Source of the DNA: Curtobacterium sp. MCLR17_032
Lineage (GTDB): Bacteria > Actinomycetota > Actinomycetes > Actinomycetales > Microbacteriaceae
Length of the DNA stretch: 64,000 bases
NCBI RefSeq assembly: GCF_003234795.2
Contig: NZ_CP126268.1
Span: 1,798,001 to 1,862,000, forward strand
Reading direction: 5' to 3'
Within the stretch, counting starts at the first letter, position 1. Every line of letters begins with the position of its first letter. The notes beneath the pieces were generated by a model that made no database searches, was not told the origin of the DNA, and saw nothing but the letters and a program-made list of their open reading frames with translations. The translations under genes were made by a program, and so were the position numbers. Positions 391-15,818 of the stretch are shown here, piece after piece.

Positions 391-903
391 ATGCTGGTTC
401 AGGTTTGTGGTCTTCCCGGCGCAGGGAAGTCGACGCTGTCTGCTGCGATTGCGGAGTTGACGCCCTCGCTGACGCTTCGCGTTGATGCGATCGAGGGCGC
501 GATGTGGAAGTACCAGATCCCGCGTGAGCAGTCAGGAATCGCCGCGTACTCGATCATGCATGCCATCGCGGTAGCGAATCTGCGGCGCGGTCAGGTGGTC
601 ATCGCGGACGCGGTGAGCGGCGTTGAACCCGCTCGGGCTGGTTGGGCGTCGACCGCGGATGTTGCCGGGGTACCGCTGCGTGTCATCGAGGTTGTGTGTG
701 CGGACGTCGACGAGCACCGTCGCCGTGTGGAACAGCGGGCGAACGATCTGCCTGGGTTCACCTTGCCGACGTGGGACGAAGTACAGCGCACCGCCGACGA
801 GTACGAGCCCCGCACGGACGATCGGCTCGTCATCGACAGCACCCGCCCCCTCGAGGAAACAGTCCGTCAGGCCCTCGACTATCTCGAACTGCACGCCCCG
901 TGA
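391..903 (+). CDS. P-loop kinase-like ATPase (AAA_33 type)
   Basis: A 170-residue cytosolic protein that begins directly with a nucleotide-binding fold. The Walker A motif GLPGAGKST lies at residues 7-15, and a Walker B-like VIADA strand lies near residue 70. The size and layout match small zeta-toxin, APS-kinase or shikimate-kinase-like P-loop kinases that phosphorylate a small molecule or nucleotide. The substrate cannot be read from the sequence. I chose the ATG at 391 because a GGAG lies 7-10 bases upstream and the protein then starts at the first beta strand. The frame is open further upstream without recognisable protein. The S66 peptidase gene follows after 52 bp and may be co-transcribed. 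Confidence 0.8.
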   Translation: MLVQVCGLPGAGKSTLSAAIAELTPSLTLRVDAIEGAMWKYQIPREQSGIAAYSIMHAIAVANLRRGQVVIADAVSGVEPARAGWASTADVAGVPLRVIEVVCADVDEHRRRVEQRANDLPGFTLPTWDEVQRTADEYEPRTDDRLVIDSTRPLEETVRQALDYLELHAP

Positions 904-955: not shown

Positions 956-1873
956 ATGGAAGCAACGATGCTTGAACCTCGCACGCTGGCCCCTGGTGAC
1001 ACCGTCGCGATCGTTTCGCCAGCGTCGTGGCCGGAAGACTCCGTACCTGGCTGGATCGCTGATCAGGTCGAATCATGGGGCCTTCGAGCAGTCGTTGCGC
1101 CGCACGCGCTCGATCACCGCGGCTACCTCGCCGGCACCGATGCCGACCGGATCGCAGACCTGAACAACGTGATTCGAGACCCGGCGGTTCGTGCCGTGAT
1201 CGCTTCCACCGGAGGCTGCGGCAGCTTCCGAATCGCTCCGCTCGTTGATACCGACGCGCTCCGCGCTGACCCCAAGCTGCTGGTCGGATACAGCGACATC
1301 ACCGCCCTGCACTGTGTCTGGGATGCTGCCGGCGTCCCGACGCTGCACGGCGCGATCGCCGGCGCCCACGCTGACCACGTCCGACGGCTACTCATGGAGG
1401 GCGCCCGCACCGTCGTCGACGCTGACACTCGCGCCTTGTCTGCTGAGCTCACCACGACGGGACGCGTCGAGGGGACGCTCTTTGGTGGGAACCTCGAGAT
1501 GCTGGCGCGGTCGGTCGGGGTCGTGGACCTCGACCTCGCGGGCAGGATCGTCCTCCTCGAGATCAACCGCGCTGCGGGGCTGGGGATTGTCGATCGGGCG
1601 CTGACGCAGCTGCGGTACTCCGGAGCGCTGGACGGTGTTGCCGGCGTCGCGCTCGGGAGCATCGACCAGTTCGCCGACTACGAGGACCGAGGCTGGACGA
1701 TCCTCGATACCCTCCGTGACCACCTGAATGCGCTCGGCGTCCCTGTCCTCGGTGGCTTGCCTCTCGGGCACATTGAGGACCTCGTCACCCTGCCACTCGG
1801 CACTCACGCCGTCCTCGACGTCGACCACGCTCGACTGATGGTCACTGCGCCGACCGCAACGGACGGTGTGTGA
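956..1873 (+). CDS. S66 family LD-carboxypeptidase (LdcA/MccF type)
   Basis: About 305 residues, the usual length for peptidase family S66, which cleaves L,D-bonds in muropeptides or inactivates microcin C-like antibiotics (MccF). The catalytic triad is visible: Ser113 in LVGYSDITALH, Glu202 in IVLLEINR and His272 in PLGHIEDLVTLPLG. The N-terminal LAPGDTVAIVSPAS is also typical of the family. The start is either ATG 956 or ATG 968. GGAGG at 950-954 is too close to the first and rather far from the second, while GGAAG at 958-962 fits the second. The end overlaps the start of a broken second copy of the same family. Whether it acts in cell-wall recycling or in antibiotic immunity cannot be decided from sequence. 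Confidence 0.85.
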   Translation: MEATMLEPRTLAPGDTVAIVSPASWPEDSVPGWIADQVESWGLRAVVAPHALDHRGYLAGTDADRIADLNNVIRDPAVRAVIASTGGCGSFRIAPLVDTDALRADPKLLVGYSDITALHCVWDAAGVPTLHGAIAGAHADHVRRLLMEGARTVVDADTRALSAELTTTGRVEGTLFGGNLEMLARSVGVVDLDLAGRIVLLEINRAAGLGIVDRALTQLRYSGALDGVAGVALGSIDQFADYEDRGWTILDTLRDHLNALGVPVLGGLPLGHIEDLVTLPLGTHAVLDVDHARLMVTAPTATDGV

Positions 1874-2283
1874 ATCCGTGCGTCAGCTTCTTCGTCCTCG
1901 TGCCCTTCAGCCTGGGGATCTCGTCGTCATCGCCTCGTTGTCCGCGCCGCTTCTTCCCGAGTACGAAGCGAACGTCGAACACACAGAACGTCTGTTCGAG
2001 CGGATGGGGTTCCGGGTCCGTCGTGAACCGCTGCTGCAGGCTGGCCACAGCAGATGGTGGAGTGCTGCTGTTCCAGCCCAGATCGCGGCGAGTTGGACAC
2101 CCCCCTGCGAGAACCCGAGGTCCGCGCCATTGTCGCGAACGATGGCGGTCAATCGGCTTTCAGGTACCTGGATCTGGTGGATTTCGACGCGATCATGCCC
2201 ATCCGAAGCCGACCCTGGGGTACAGCGACATCTCGTTGCTGCACCTGGCTCTCTACTCGCAGACGGGTCTCGTCGGCTGGTGA
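1866..2283 (+). pseudogene. Broken second S66 LD-carboxypeptidase gene
   Basis: Family S66 sequence continues in three different frames. It opens in frame with GTG 1866, which overlaps the TGA of the intact copy, as LQPGDLVVIASLSAP and a following helix. From about 2095 it moves to a second frame (REPEVRAIVANDGGQSAFR). From about 2205 it moves to a third frame, which carries the nucleophile motif LGYSDISLLHLALYSQTG and then stops at 2283. The half of the family with the Glu and His is absent. At least two frameshifts and a 3' truncation therefore inactivate it. It is clearly diverged from the intact neighbour, so it is not a recent duplicate. Confidence 0.8.
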
Positions 2284-2546
2284 TGGTCGTGGTGTCTGTT
2301 CCCCGATTCGTGTCGGTGATGTTGGGGGCGGGAGGGACGGCGCTTGGCCGTCCCTCCGGCGTTGGTCACTCCACGGGCGGGGTGAAGGTGAGCGTGTTGA
2401 CGAACGTCGCGTAGTCGGATGCTGCCGTCGGACGGCGGGTGGTTCGCGATCTGATCAGTACGGCGCAGCTCGCGGAGACATCGATCGGGAGGTGCTGGTC
2501 CTAGTCGATTTCGTGCCTCGAACACGGGGTCGCGGTAGCCGCATGA

Positions 2547-3779
2547 ATGAGTGATCGTCGAGGGATGGGGACGGAGCAGCCACGAGGCGAGCAGCTCGAG
2601 ACCGTCCGATGGATTGCGGTGGCGCTGAACAGCACCCGGACCATGATCGACCGTCGAGTGTTCGAGGACCTCTTCGAGAACTCCGTCGTCAGTGGCCGCG
2701 CTCCCTACCGGCAAGCTCTCGACCGCGCCGAGATCACGTTCGGTGACCTCGTCGAGCTGTCGCGGAAGGCGGACATCCCGTACCCGCTGTTCTTCGCTCC
2801 TCACGACTACGTCCGTGCGCAGATCGCGACCAAGACGGCCAAACTCCTCCAGGGTGTGAGTAAGGAGACGTTTGCGCTCAATTCTCGGACGACAATCGAT
2901 GTGAAGGACGTCGAGCTCATCATCAAGGACCTCATCCGGAAGCAGATGCTGCTCCGGAAGCACGACCCTGAGCTCGAGGACAACCGGATCGTGGGCCTGC
3001 TCAAGAATCCGCGAGGTACGGCGGCGGAAGACGCTCGGGTGCTGCTCGACGTTCTCGGGCTCGAACGCGACACCCTCGCCCAGGCGCGGACGAAGAAGCG
3101 CGCGCTCGAGATCATGACCGAGCGACTGGAAGCGCGGCAAGTCCTCGTCTCGCTCAGCGTTCGCGGGTTCATGCCACAGCTCATCGAGGTGAAGTTCAGC
3201 GGGCTGACCGTGAAGGACAAGAAGGTCCCGTACATCTTCCTCGCACGCGGGGACCACGGGGACGACCAGGAGCCGGAGGGGCGGCAGCTATTCACGTTGA
3301 CGTTGCTCGCCGTTCTCGTCGCCCGGGGCATCTTCGCCCCGGTGACGTACGACGGCCGGAGTCCTGCCGTCGGGCCTGGCCGCGAGTACGACATCGTCGG
3401 CGAGATCCTCATGCCAGAGGCTGCCGTTCGCGCCCTCGACCTGGAGACGCTCGAGGATGTGCGGACCGGCGCGGATCGATTCAAGGTGACGCCGAGCGCC
3501 CTGGTCGTCCGAGCACAGCGATTGCGTCTCGTGAGCCCGGCGATTGCCAGTGCCCACCTGAACGCCCTCGGTCGAGAATTCGCCGCCCGGCCGCCCAGTC
3601 GAGCACAACAGCCCAAGCCAGTGAACGGTATCCGTACCTATAACGGCAGGGCGTTCTCGGCCCGTATGGTCAGGGCACTGGACGCCGGGCAAGTCTCGCC
3701 TGGCGATTTCTGCCGAGCCGTGTGCGCGAACAAGATCAGGCCGCACCAGATCCGCGACTTCCGAGAAGCACTCGGATGA
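2547..3779 (+). CDS. ImmA/IrrE-like protein lacking the HExxH site
   Basis: A 410-residue protein with the layout of large ImmA/IrrE (COG2856) proteins. A helical N-terminal half ends in a helix resembling the 'IRDCLRRQ..LR' segment (LIIKDLIRKQMLLRKH). The protease-like domain follows. In that domain the family's FTLAHELxH motif is replaced by LFTLTLLAVLVARG, around residues 250-263. The later E..N.FAAEFLMP motif is kept only as EYDIVGEILMPEAAV, and the terminal helix FKVTPSALVVRAQRL is typical. The zinc-binding His and Glu are therefore missing, so I infer a non-catalytic protein, perhaps an antitoxin or sensor. The stop overlaps the PIN-like gene by 4 nt (ATGA). ATG 2565 is an alternative start. 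Confidence 0.7.
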   Translation: MSDRRGMGTEQPRGEQLETVRWIAVALNSTRTMIDRRVFEDLFENSVVSGRAPYRQALDRAEITFGDLVELSRKADIPYPLFFAPHDYVRAQIATKTAKLLQGVSKETFALNSRTTIDVKDVELIIKDLIRKQMLLRKHDPELEDNRIVGLLKNPRGTAAEDARVLLDVLGLERDTLAQARTKKRALEIMTERLEARQVLVSLSVRGFMPQLIEVKFSGLTVKDKKVPYIFLARGDHGDDQEPEGRQLFTLTLLAVLVARGIFAPVTYDGRSPAVGPGREYDIVGEILMPEAAVRALDLETLEDVRTGADRFKVTPSALVVRAQRLRLVSPAIASAHLNALGREFAARPPSRAQQPKPVNGIRTYNGRAFSARMVRALDAGQVSPGDFCRAVCANKIRPHQIRDFREALG

Positions 3780-4429
3780 TGGGTCACCGGTACCTCCTCG
3801 ACAACAACGTCCTTTCGCGTCTCACCGCGGAAGAGCGGTCCAGGTCCTTCATCCGCGAGCACTGTCGTGTCCCTTCAGAGGTGTTGCACGAAGCTCGTTT
3901 CCTCCAGGACGCGGGGTCCCTCGTTGCGCTCGAGTACCGAACGACCGGAAGGGTGTTGCAGCGCCTCCAGGAAGTCATGGAGCGTGTGGCCGTCGACGAC
4001 GTGCGCCTGGTCAATCTCTACAGCGGCAAGGGCAACGCCGACCCGATGCTCGTAGCGTGTGCTCTGGACGCCGTGGGTGAAGAGAACGAAGGTCTCTTCG
4101 GTGACGATTGGGCGATCATCTCGAACGACGATGCGGTCCGCGCGATGGCAGGCCTGTTCGGTATCCCCGTCCTCACGAGCGGCGACCTCGATGTCCTCCT
4201 CGGTGACGGCGATGACGGCGGAGGCGGGGGGGGACCCGACCCGCCTTGTCTAACGGTGCTGCGCCGCTCTGCGTCCCGGACCGACCGGTCTCGCATCCAT
4301 CGCCTTCAACGAAGCATTCTCCGAAGGGCCGCGCATCTCGTCCTGAGGCGTCTCCGCGTGACGGCGATGGCGGCCGTTTCGGTTGCAGCGGTAGCCCATA
4401 GTTCCTGCTGGACCGCGTTCAGTGCTTGA
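3776..4429 (+). CDS. PIN-like ribonuclease-fold protein
   Basis: The first 150 or so residues have the PIN-domain pattern. YLLDNNVLSRL at the N-terminus supplies the first acidic residue. PSEVLHEAR carries the conserved Glu, NADPMLVACAL the third acid and DDWAIISNDDAVR the last acids, followed by a short strand (IPVLTSGDL). PIN proteins are Mg2+-dependent RNases and are often toxins. Translation is coupled to the ImmA/IrrE-like gene by ATGA, with a second ATG at 3779. After residue 150 the frame enters a glycine run encoded by eight consecutive G (4226-4233). It then continues as an unrelated basic tail that overlaps an opposite gene. With seven G the protein would end at 4253, right after the domain, so the tail is suspect. 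Confidence 0.7.
   Translation: MMGHRYLLDNNVLSRLTAEERSRSFIREHCRVPSEVLHEARFLQDAGSLVALEYRTTGRVLQRLQEVMERVAVDDVRLVNLYSGKGNADPMLVACALDAVGEENEGLFGDDWAIISNDDAVRAMAGLFGIPVLTSGDLDVLLGDGDDGGGGGGPDPPCLTVLRRSASRTDRSRIHRLQRSILRRAAHLVLRRLRVTAMAAVSVAAVAHSSCWTAFSA
4226..4233 (+). repeat. G8 homopolymer in the PIN-like gene
   Basis: Eight consecutive G residues sit exactly where the PIN-like domain ends. Loss of one G moves translation into the frame that stops at TAA 4251-4253. Tracts of this length are slippage-prone, so the C-terminus may be length-variable between cells or strains. An error in the assembly is the simple alternative. Confidence 0.6.
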
Positions 4430-7482: not shown

Positions 7483-7959
7483 TCACACGAGCCGCGACGG
7501 CACCCCAAACTCGGCGAGGATGCCCGACAGCGTTGTGCCGAGCAGTCCGGCGGTTCGTTCGTACTTCGCTTGCAGCCGGGCTCGGGTCGCGTCGTCGGAC
7601 ACCAGCGCGAGCCGGCCGGGGTCGGCGTTGTGGCTGACGTCGGCCCGCTTCACCCGAGGGGCGATCGGGTCGGCCATGACCCGCGCCATCGAGTCGGTCA
7701 GCGTTTCCCCGCGACGCTTCGTCATCGCGTCCACCGCGAGCACCTGCTCGGCGGTGAACCCCATCGACCGGAGCTCGGCGAGAGTGATGTCCGTGTCCTC
7801 GACGACGTCGTGCAACCAGCCGACGACCTGCTCGTCCACGGTGGACACCCGGGCCGCGACCGCGGCGGGATGCTCGATGTACGGCCGGCCGACCTTGTCC
7901 GTCTGCCCGTCGTGCGCACGGGTGGCCACGTCCCGCGCCAACGCCACCATGTCAGTCAT
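7483..7959 (-). CDS. Small HD-domain phosphohydrolase (SpoT/MESH1-like)
   Basis: A 158-residue protein consisting only of an HD domain of the RelA/SpoT hydrolase kind. The metal-binding pattern is present: His16 in RAHDGQ, His30 in YIEHP, the HD pair His50-Asp51 in WLHDVVEDT with the following Glu54-Asp55, and KRADVSHNAD near residue 108. Stand-alone proteins of this type (MESH1-like) remove pyrophosphate from (p)ppGpp or act on NADPH or other nucleotides. The true substrate here is inferred only from the family. It has no synthetase, TGS or ACT domain. Confidence 0.8.
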   Translation of the reverse strand: MTDMVALARDVATRAHDGQTDKVGRPYIEHPAAVAARVSTVDEQVVGWLHDVVEDTDITLAELRSMGFTAEQVLAVDAMTKRRGETLTDSMARVMADPIAPRVKRADVSHNADPGRLALVSDDATRARLQAKYERTAGLLGTTLSGILAEFGVPSRLV

Positions 7960-9166: not shown

Positions 9167-9718
9167 ATGACTGACGACGACACCGCCGCCACCGCCCAGT
9201 CCGTCTACGACGCGTGGGACCGGCAGCTCCGACTCGACCTGTCGTTGACCGTCGATGAGGACGGCCGGTCGTTCACCGGCGGTCGGATGCAGCGGTCTGT
9301 AGCGGAGCTCCGCGTGCCGACCGAGGGGTACTCGTCGCACGGTGTCGTCATCGGCCGGTGCACCGCGTACACGCTGTACGCGCCGGACTCGTTCGACACC
9401 GTCATGGGCAACTTCGACGTGTTCCAGTTCCTCGGCGACTACCGGTCGGCGCTGCCCATCCACCACCCCGCCGGCGGATCCTTCTGGGAGCTGTTCACCC
9501 GCGCCCGGGACCTGCTCGGCAAGCCGGACCTGTTCACCATCGACCGCATCGCCATCAAGGACGAGTACCGGGACCTCCACGAACTCACCCCGGTCATCAT
9601 CTCCGCGCTGAGCAACAGCCCCGCCGGACGGTCCTCCGCGATGGTGCTCATCGACCCGTCCACCTGGAACATCCCGTTCACCGAGTACGACCAGGAAGGG
9701 CTGTCGTTCGCACCGTAG
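9167..9718 (+). CDS. Hypothetical protein (183 aa)
   Basis: A soluble, acidic protein with mixed strands and helices and no recognisable motif; VVIGRCTAYTLYAPDSFDT and FTIDRIAIKDEYRD are typical pieces. The wording 'RI.I..EYR' in the second half is weakly like acetyltransferase strand beta-4, but the acetyl-CoA loop (Q/RxxGxG/A) is missing, so I do not call it a GNAT protein. ATG 9167 starts the frame. The next gene begins 12 bp after its stop, so the two are probably one operon. Confidence 0.65.
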   Translation: MTDDDTAATAQSVYDAWDRQLRLDLSLTVDEDGRSFTGGRMQRSVAELRVPTEGYSSHGVVIGRCTAYTLYAPDSFDTVMGNFDVFQFLGDYRSALPIHHPAGGSFWELFTRARDLLGKPDLFTIDRIAIKDEYRDLHELTPVIISALSNSPAGRSSAMVLIDPSTWNIPFTEYDQEGLSFAP

Positions 9719-15585: not shown

Positions 15586-15635
15586 GCATTTCCCTGACAC
15601 GGAAGAGGTCACTGGTTCGATCCCAGTATCGCCCA
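15586..15635 (+). other. Att-like 3' fragment of tRNA-Val(GAC)
   Basis: Fifty bases match the 3' part of an actinobacterial tRNA-Val. They contain the end of the D stem, a perfect anticodon arm with loop CTGACAC (anticodon GAC), the variable bases, a complete T arm (CTGGTTCGATCCCAG) and the acceptor strand ATCGCCC plus discriminator A. The 5' acceptor strand and D arm are absent, so it is not a tRNA gene. Integrases that target tRNA genes leave exactly this kind of 3' copy at one end of the inserted element. The functional tRNA-Val should lie at the other island end, outside the window. Confidence 0.85.
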
Positions 15636-15640
15636 CAGAA

Positions 15641-15670
15641 CGAAGACCCCCGGGAAACCGGGGGTCTTCG
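15641..15670 (+). terminator. Intrinsic terminator after the tRNA-Val fragment
   Basis: A perfect 13-bp stem (CGAAGACCCCCGG / CCGGGGGTCTTCG) with a GAAA loop is followed by TGTTTTCC. Its position six bases after the tRNA end suggests it is the original terminator of the chromosomal tRNA-Val gene. Confidence 0.85.
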
Positions 15671-15818
15671 TGTTTTCCGGCTCCGTTTTGACGTTGCGAC
15701 CAGATGCACCCATCGTCTGTTCCGCCATGAAGGAGCACCGGGCTCCTCCGCCACCTGGTGAGGGACTGCCCTGCCGGCCACTGCGTAGGCTCGGGACGAC
15801 CGAGGCCGAGGGGGCACC

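What the first reader, a model, noticed from the sequence alone, without database searches (positions are those of the whole stretch)
2547..4253. Catalytically empty ImmA/IrrE-like protein coupled to a PIN-like protein
The large ImmA/IrrE-type protein keeps the fold landmarks around the active site, but HExxH is replaced by TLLAV-type residues in LFTLTLLAVLVARG. It overlaps by 4 nt with a PIN-fold gene that retains its acidic residues. ImmA/IrrE proteins normally cut a repressor or antitoxin. A dead version paired with an intact putative RNase suggests an inhibitor or sensor subunit, i.e. an unusual toxin-antitoxin or defence pair. This is the best candidate for an undescribed system in the window.
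Basis: partly seen in the sequence, partly recalled or inferred. Interest (0 to 1): 0.7.

Follow-up and report, generated by a model that had tools for sequence, protein, structure and literature searches.

The report
Toxin pair with protease-dead antitoxin
This is a mobile two-gene pair, probably an RNA-cutting toxin and its large antitoxin, in which the antitoxin's built-in self-destruct protease has been lost throughout an old branch of soil bacteria, so the toxin must be let loose in some other way.

Summary
Gene A (2547-3779, 410 aa) overlaps PIN-like gene B (from 3776) by ATGA. A is a full-length profile homologue of the XRE-ImmA/IrrE proteins encoded before DUF4411 PIN genes (hhalign 98.7%, E 2e-16), the family of the solved antitoxin VapB52. 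None of 242 A-family sequences examined has HExxH at the site; the FR cut-site motif is missing too (0 of 62; 13 of 16 HExxH-bearing relatives). The branch is one clade under purifying selection. B keeps four PIN acids. A and B occur in the same 13 of 66 Curtobacterium genomes, adjacent in all 14 copies. The pair rides a 28.8-kb tRNA-Val element. In print, VapB52 with mutated zinc histidines still bound its toxin but no longer cut itself. Best reading: a VapBC52-type toxin-antitoxin pair with an ancient pseudo-peptidase antitoxin, its toxin released otherwise. New variant of a known kind. Toxicity, neutralisation and structure untested.

The parts
2547..3779 (+). gene A: pseudo-ImmA/IrrE putative antitoxin, 410 aa
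   Evidence: ORF; family of 242 sequences; full-length hhalign match to HExxH-bearing XRE-ImmA proteins
2646..2822 (+). A residues 34-92: XRE-like N-terminal domain, about 11 residues shorter than in HExxH-bearing relatives; predicted toxin-binding part
   Evidence: alignment; role inferred from VapB52 NTD (PMC13273310 section 27)
2844..2891 (+). A residues 100-115: linker that replaces the FR motif (probable cut site of VapB52); FR absent in 0 of 62 rows having it
   Evidence: 13 of 16 HExxH-bearing rows have FR there
3252..3290 (+). A residues 236-248: inserted conserved loop just before the dead site (E242 in 241, G245 and R246 in 242 of 242)
3303..3317 (+). A residues 253-257 (LLAVL): dead active-site position opposite HExxH; L253 in 242 of 242
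3375..3386 (+). A residues 277-280: position of the lost third zinc ligand (277) and nearby E280 (Glu in 204 of 242)
3444..3536 (+). A residues 300-330: HTH-like stretch after the peptidase core with conserved TPSA..R
   Evidence: conservation; phrog_2439 transcriptional regulator hit at 285-341, E 1.7e-4
3621..3776 (+). A residues 359-410: C-terminal domain aligned with the domain that plugs the toxin in VapB52
   Evidence: role inferred from PMC13273310
3776..3779 (+). ATGA stop-start overlap of A and B
   Evidence: sequence; same overlap in 14 of 15 GTDB loci
3776..4429 (+). gene B: PIN-like putative RNase toxin, 217 aa as sequenced; PIN part about residues 1-147, tail not shared by relatives
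   Evidence: PIN_4 in 6 of 51 family members; hhalign to DUF4411 96.0%, E 4.8e-9
3800..3802 (+). B D9, PIN acidic residue
   Evidence: invariant in 51; 17 of 18 loci
3890..3892 (+). B E39, PIN acidic residue
   Evidence: invariant in 51; 18 of 18 loci
4040..4042 (+). B D89, PIN acidic residue
   Evidence: invariant in 51; 18 of 18 loci
4127..4129 (+). B D118, PIN acidic residue
   Evidence: invariant in 51; 18 of 18 loci
15590..15675 (+). right end (attR-like) of the integrative element: 86-bp exact repeat of the tRNA-Val(gac) 3' end and what follows it; left copy at G000:C1:1784756-1784841, outside the window

Best explanation
A and B form a chromosomal, mobile type II toxin-antitoxin pair of VapBC52 architecture. 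B is a PIN RNase toxin, probably a tRNase (inferred from VapC52). A is its antitoxin: the N-terminal XRE-like domain grips the toxin dimer from outside and the C-terminal domain plugs the active site, with the pseudo-peptidase and HTH between them as a scaffold (inferred from the VapBC52 crystal structure). In VapB52 the zinc peptidase, switched on by single-stranded DNA, cuts the antitoxin at the FR linker and frees the toxin. In this branch the scissors (HExxH and third ligand) and the FR cut site are both gone, so self-cleavage cannot be the trigger; I think release most likely comes from turnover of A by host proteases, as in ordinary type II pairs, possibly helped by a shape change of A when its retained HTH or the rebuilt pocket binds something. 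Shown: sequence, homology, conserved losses, co-occurrence, mobility. Inferred: toxicity, neutralisation, target, release.
For: A profile vs HExxH-bearing DUF4411 partners: hhalign 98.7%, E 2e-16, A residues 31-407; wider set 99.0%, E 2.6e-18. That reference set is the VapB52 family: its profile matches PDB 9vzy_A end to end at E 2.5e-92, and the DUF4411 profile matches 9vzy_D and 9vzz_A, entries of the VapBC52 paper. Toxin families match at 96.0%, E 4.8e-9; control A vs DUF4411 0.3%. No zinc site in 242 sequences; FR absent 0 of 62 vs 13 of 16. B's four acids invariant in 51. A and B in the same 13 of 66 genus genomes, 14 adjacent copies each, no orphan; ATGA overlap in 14 of 15 loci. dN/dS 0.15-0.26 for A, 0.17-0.22 for B. 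Pair carried by tRNA-targeted elements. Published: VapB52 H216A/H220A still binds VapC52 and no longer self-cleaves (sections 27 and 28 of PMC13273310).
Against: No experiment and no structure model. The A profile finds no PDB chain, not even 9vzy (one search gave one chance hit, E 0.68), so the link rests on profile-profile comparison. The HExxH-bearing set was picked by that motif. A1 is a shallow profile (Neff 2.1). PADLOC and NCBIfam list neither protein. One locus of 15 (L011) keeps A beside a B whose start and first Asp are lost, and one B in 14 genus copies has an internal stop: tolerable for a pair whose toxin may decay, but not proof.
Confidence: 0.66

Rival explanations
1. The dead site has been rebuilt into a ligand pocket: A is a sensor-antitoxin that lets go of B when a small molecule or nucleic acid binds the pseudo-active site or its HTH, without any cutting.
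For: The dead-site helix and the inserted loop ahead of it are among the best conserved parts (mean conservation 0.79 for 249-263; E242, G245, R246 in at least 241 of 242). Precedent: in PrpR the residues of HEXXH are not conserved and the cavity corresponding to that of IrrE binds CoA (PMC6765138, passages). TPSA..R in the HTH-like stretch is nearly invariant.
Against: No ligand known; conservation could be packing. The loop's H237 and D239 are not kept in the second subfamily. No structure.
Confidence: 0.22
2. The pair is an abortive-infection defence module, the toxin being set free when a phage attacks A or its upkeep.
For: Patchy, mobile, cargo of tRNA elements; VapC52 overexpression protected M. 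smegmatis against phage D29 (abstract of PMC13273310). Compatible with the best explanation.
Against: No PADLOC match; no recognised defence cluster was shown around the pair; A was not found in phages, plasmids or viral contigs.
Confidence: 0.3
3. Not a toxin-antitoxin pair: A is a partner that directs or scaffolds a beneficial RNase B in RNA handling.
For: Strict pairing and co-divergence (r 0.97 over 153 locus pairs) would also fit an enzyme complex; toxicity is untested.
Against: Sporadic presence (13 of 66 genus genomes), mobile elements and homology to a functional toxin-antitoxin pair.
Confidence: 0.12
4. A still is a protease through other residues, or is a recently broken pseudogene.
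For: E280 is kept in 204 of 242, near the third-ligand position.
Against: Both His, the catalytic Glu and the aligned third ligand are gone in the whole sampled clade; dN/dS 0.15-0.26 and intact frames argue against decay.
Confidence: 0.03

Closest known systems
VapBC52 (Rv2514c-Rv2515c) of Mycobacterium tuberculosis, PDB 9vzy/9vzz, PMC13273310
   Same: Large three-domain antitoxin (XRE-like NTD, ImmA/IrrE plus HTH middle, small helical CTD) paired with a PIN toxin; homologous over A residues 31-407 through the family profile. The paper's zinc-site mutant still binds its toxin.
   Different: No HExxH, no third ligand, no FR cut motif; NTD about 11 residues shorter; extra loop before the site; toxin not recognised by the DUF4411 Pfam model (own genome 0).
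COG2856 (Zn peptidase fused to HTH) - PIN pairs predicted by Makarova et al. 2009, PMC2701414
   Same: Fused HTH-COG2856 gene in one putative operon with a PIN gene.
   Different: Their family is defined by HEXXH and their model by proteolysis of a repressor or antitoxin; here no protease is left.
IrrE / ImmA / CapP metallopeptidases (PF06114, M78)
   Same: Peptidase-like core and following HTH; 13 of 54 members match PF06114.
   Different: Catalytic and zinc residues replaced in the whole sampled branch.
PrpR (PMC6765138)
   Same: An IrrE-like domain in which the HEXXH residues are not conserved.
   Different: PrpR is a CoA-binding, Fe-S transcription factor with no PIN partner in that report; relation here is by analogy only.

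Membership tests
VapBC52-type self-cleaving toxin-antitoxin | three-domain XRE / ImmA-IrrE+HTH / helical CTD antitoxin | tested here: met
   profile-profile match over A residues 31-407; no structure
VapBC52-type self-cleaving toxin-antitoxin | zinc-binding HEXXH in the middle domain | tested here: not met
   0 of 242 at the site
VapBC52-type self-cleaving toxin-antitoxin | FR motif at the NTD-middle junction | tested here: not met
   0 of 62 A-family rows, 13 of 16 HExxH-bearing rows
VapBC52-type self-cleaving toxin-antitoxin | ssDNA-induced self-cleavage releases the toxin | not testable with these tools
   biochemistry; excluded in its known form by the lost residues
VapBC52-type self-cleaving toxin-antitoxin | PIN toxin gene directly downstream | tested here: met
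   20 of 21 loci examined hold A and B together; the other, L029, holds only the start of an A whose rest is L022 on another contig of the same genome
DUF4411 (PF14367) PIN toxins | match to the Pfam model | tested here: not met
   B 0 families; own genome 0
DUF4411 (PF14367) PIN toxins | homology by profile comparison | tested here: met
   96.0%, E 4.8e-9, 121 columns
PIN domain nucleases | conserved acidic tetrad | tested here: met
   D9, E39, D89, D118 in 51 of 51
PIN domain nucleases | RNase activity | not testable with these tools
   none
ImmA/IrrE (M78) metallopeptidases | HExxH plus downstream Glu | tested here: not met
ImmA/IrrE (M78) metallopeptidases | sequence homology to PF06114 | tested here: met
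   13 of 54 members at E <= 0.01, 4 over cut-off; A itself not
type II toxin-antitoxin | toxin harmful alone, neutralised by the partner protein | not testable with these tools
   only genetic signs: co-occurrence 13 of 66, no orphan

The most novel reading that the evidence does not exclude
A whole clade of VapB52-like antitoxins traded self-cleavage for a non-proteolytic switch: the dead peptidase core, with its invariant new loop (E242, G245, R246) and HTH, is a ligand- or DNA-operated latch that opens and releases a PIN toxin reversibly, so that a one-shot suicide switch became a resettable one.
Probability: 0.2. Interest if true: 0.75.

Novelty: new variant of a known kind. Interest (0 to 1): 0.52.

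Why it matters
VapB52 was reported in 2026 to be its own sensor, scissors and substrate. An old, selected branch that kept the scaffold and the toxin but dropped both scissors and cut site is a natural experiment: it separates neutralisation, which needs no zinc site, from triggering, which there does. It makes the open question of how large ImmA-type antitoxins release their toxins directly testable, and warns that annotating such genes as metallo-endopeptidases, as some databases do for members of this branch, is misleading.

Tried and rejected
Single-sequence and profile searches of A against the PDB found nothing useful; B's profile found only weak hits, the best 3ix7 at E 0.0019 over 34 residues. 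PADLOC and NCBIfam gave no family for either protein. Plasmid, phage and viral collections held no A. Recent-mutant and pseudogene readings were rejected on conservation and dN/dS. A HExxH in P0249 was checked and lies at residue 334, outside the site. A search for terminal repeats around the copies beside tRNA-Val(tac) found none in the stretches fetched. The co-divergence of A and B (r 0.97) was not corrected for shared ancestry and is given little weight. Integrases on the other 15 genomes were listed but could not be placed relative to the pair except by direct comparison. The library holds open-licence papers only, and the CapP paper was not held.

Full report
What is there. Gene A is the ORF 2547-3779 (410 aa) and gene B starts at 3776, the two sharing ATGA. 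Relatives of B are mostly 141-167 aa, and B's last 60-70 residues have no counterpart in the aligned relatives, so the PIN part is about residues 1-147. The window lies in a 3.71-Mb single-contig genome whose genus is that of the Curtobacterium hits (the genus name is inferred from those records).

The family of A. A protein search returned 564 relatives, 120 listed; a second, started from the most distant copy met in whole genomes, returned 419, 120 listed. Together with A and that copy these are 242 non-identical sequences, all covering the site; none has HExxH there and none has two His there. One, P0249, has a HExxH elsewhere, at residue 334. L253 is Leu in 242 of 242 and residue 257 is Leu in 234, Met in 4 and Phe in 4. 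The lists are capped, so intermediates among the unlisted relatives are not excluded.

What A descends from. Pfam names neither A nor B directly. But 13 of 54 A-family members match PF06114 Peptidase_M78 at E <= 0.01, four above the curated cut-off, and A's HTH-like stretch hits a PHROG regulator family, E 1.7e-4. Weak whole-genome matches of the A profile led to HExxH-bearing ImmA proteins encoded just before DUF4411 genes. From 19 loci examined, 17 held an ORF with the HExxH pattern (one gene twice); two loci with only partial DUF4411 matches held none. I aligned 16 such proteins, chosen by that motif, and 14 of their PIN partners. A's profile matches theirs over A residues 31-407, probability 98.7%, E 2e-16, and a wider A profile gives 99.0%, E 2.6e-18. 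B's profile matches the DUF4411 one at 96.0%, E 4.8e-9. As a control, A's profile against DUF4411 gives 0.3%. The HExxH-bearing profile matches PDB 9vzy_A end to end (E 2.5e-92) and the DUF4411 profile 9vzy_D and 9vzz_A, which are the entries of the VapBC52 paper. The A profile by itself finds no such chain.

What has been lost and kept. On a joint alignment, the 16 HExxH rows keep H, E, H and the downstream Glu in all 16; the 62 A-family rows have none of them, the Glu position being Ala, Pro, Val or Gly in 61. The FR dipeptide, probable cut site in VapB52, is present in the same columns in 13 of 16 HExxH rows and in 0 of 62 A-family rows. A's N-terminal domain is about 11 residues shorter where the XRE helix-turn-helix lies, and a short loop (236-248) is inserted ahead of the dead site with E242 in 241 and G245 and R246 in 242 of 242. 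The site helix is among the best conserved segments (mean 0.79). A tree of 54 A-family, 16 HExxH and 2 outlying rows puts the A family on one side of one branch (100/98, all 200 bootstrap trees) at the end of a very long stem; its root is for drawing only, and that HExxH was lost rather than gained is inferred from its presence in IrrE, CapP and VapB52. dN/dS by my own Nei-Gojobori script is 0.15-0.26 for A and 0.17-0.22 for B.

The pair as a unit. Of 21 loci tested, 20 hold A and B together; the remaining one, L029, holds only the start of an A whose rest (L022) lies with B on another contig of that genome. The ATGA overlap is seen in 14 of 15 GTDB loci; in the fifteenth, L011, B's beginning and its first catalytic Asp are missing. 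In 66 genomes of the genus, 13 carry strong A matches and the same 13 carry B, 14 copies of each, adjacent every time; two further genomes, G638 and G1043, have weak partial A matches (E 1.3e-7 and 2.4e-4) that I did not inspect. One B of the 14 has an internal stop. Across wider samples strong A matches are rare: 4 of 249 in the family, 2 of 394 in the class, 2 of 396 in the phylum, own genome included in each.

Where it sits. A tRNA-Val(gac) gene lies at G000:C1:1784730-1784802, followed by a tyrosine integrase (PF00589, E 7.8e-19) and an HTH_17 excisionase-like gene. An 86-bp exact repeat of the tRNA's end recurs at window 15590-15675, 28,834 bp further on, and in genome G650, which has no A, the two flanks meet at that tRNA. 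In G642, G645 and G647 the pair lies downstream of the same tRNA with an integrase 92-96% identical. Other copies lie beside tRNA-Val(tac) (five stretches), tRNA-Ser(gga) with a 21-bp repeat 16.3 kb away (L009) or tRNA-Ser(cga) (L016). A was not found in plasmid, phage or viral collections.

How it probably works. I read from PMC13273310 the abstract, sections 26, 27, 28, 33 and 39 and passages. There the antitoxin's N-terminal domain binds the toxin dimer from outside, its C-terminal domain blocks the active site, and ssDNA switches on the zinc peptidase, which cuts off the N-terminal domain. A His-to-Ala double mutant of the zinc site did not cut itself but still bound the toxin. A is in effect the natural counterpart of that mutant, with the cut site gone as well. 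I therefore take A to be a binding-only antitoxin. What frees the toxin is not shown; turnover by host proteases is the default for type II pairs (general knowledge), and a ligand- or DNA-driven latch is the bolder option, for which PrpR is an analogy (passages of PMC6765138). PMC2701414 (passages) predicted COG2856-PIN operons and assumed proteolysis. PMC6929052, PMC8790059 and PMC10233336 were seen as passages and add no pseudo-peptidase case. No paper in the listings was recognised as describing this branch; those are open-licence papers only.

Verdict.

Noticed in passing
window 4190-4429: B's reading frame after about residue 147 differs from that of near relatives, beginning in a G-rich run, giving a 217-aa protein where the 95%-identical relative has 158 aa; could be natural or a sequencing matter.
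   Followed up: partly
P0135 (record named Curtobacterium flaccumfaciens pv. flaccumfaciens): A single 348-aa predicted protein joins the second half of an A to a complete-looking B.
   Followed up: no
loci L085-L089, L091, L003, L004, L009, L016: Copies of the pair lie at or near tRNA-Val or tRNA-Ser genes, and VapC52 was reported to cut tRNA-Val and tRNA-Ser. tRNA genes are common integration sites, so this may be coincidence; not tested.
   Followed up: partly
window 956-2411: A Peptidase_S66 (LD-carboxypeptidase-type) gene, PF02016 and PF17676, is followed by what looks by eye like the start of a second, decayed copy just upstream of A; a Pfam scan of that second stretch found nothing.
   Followed up: partly
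window 7483-7959 (-): Small stand-alone HD-domain protein within the element, PF13328 HD_4 E 2.4e-5, below that family's cut-off.
   Followed up: no
window 391-903: AAA_33 P-loop kinase-like gene within the element.
   Followed up: no
L050:3752-4921 (-), outside the window: CoiA_nuc nuclease-like protein in the same element (PF06054, E 9.4e-10).
   Followed up: no
L011 about 9182-9656: Arthrobacter copy whose A is intact in frame while B has lost its start and first catalytic Asp.
   Followed up: no
G642:C3:808000-827900 (L090) and L087: One genome carries two different copies of the pair, 94% and 50% identical to A.
   Followed up: no
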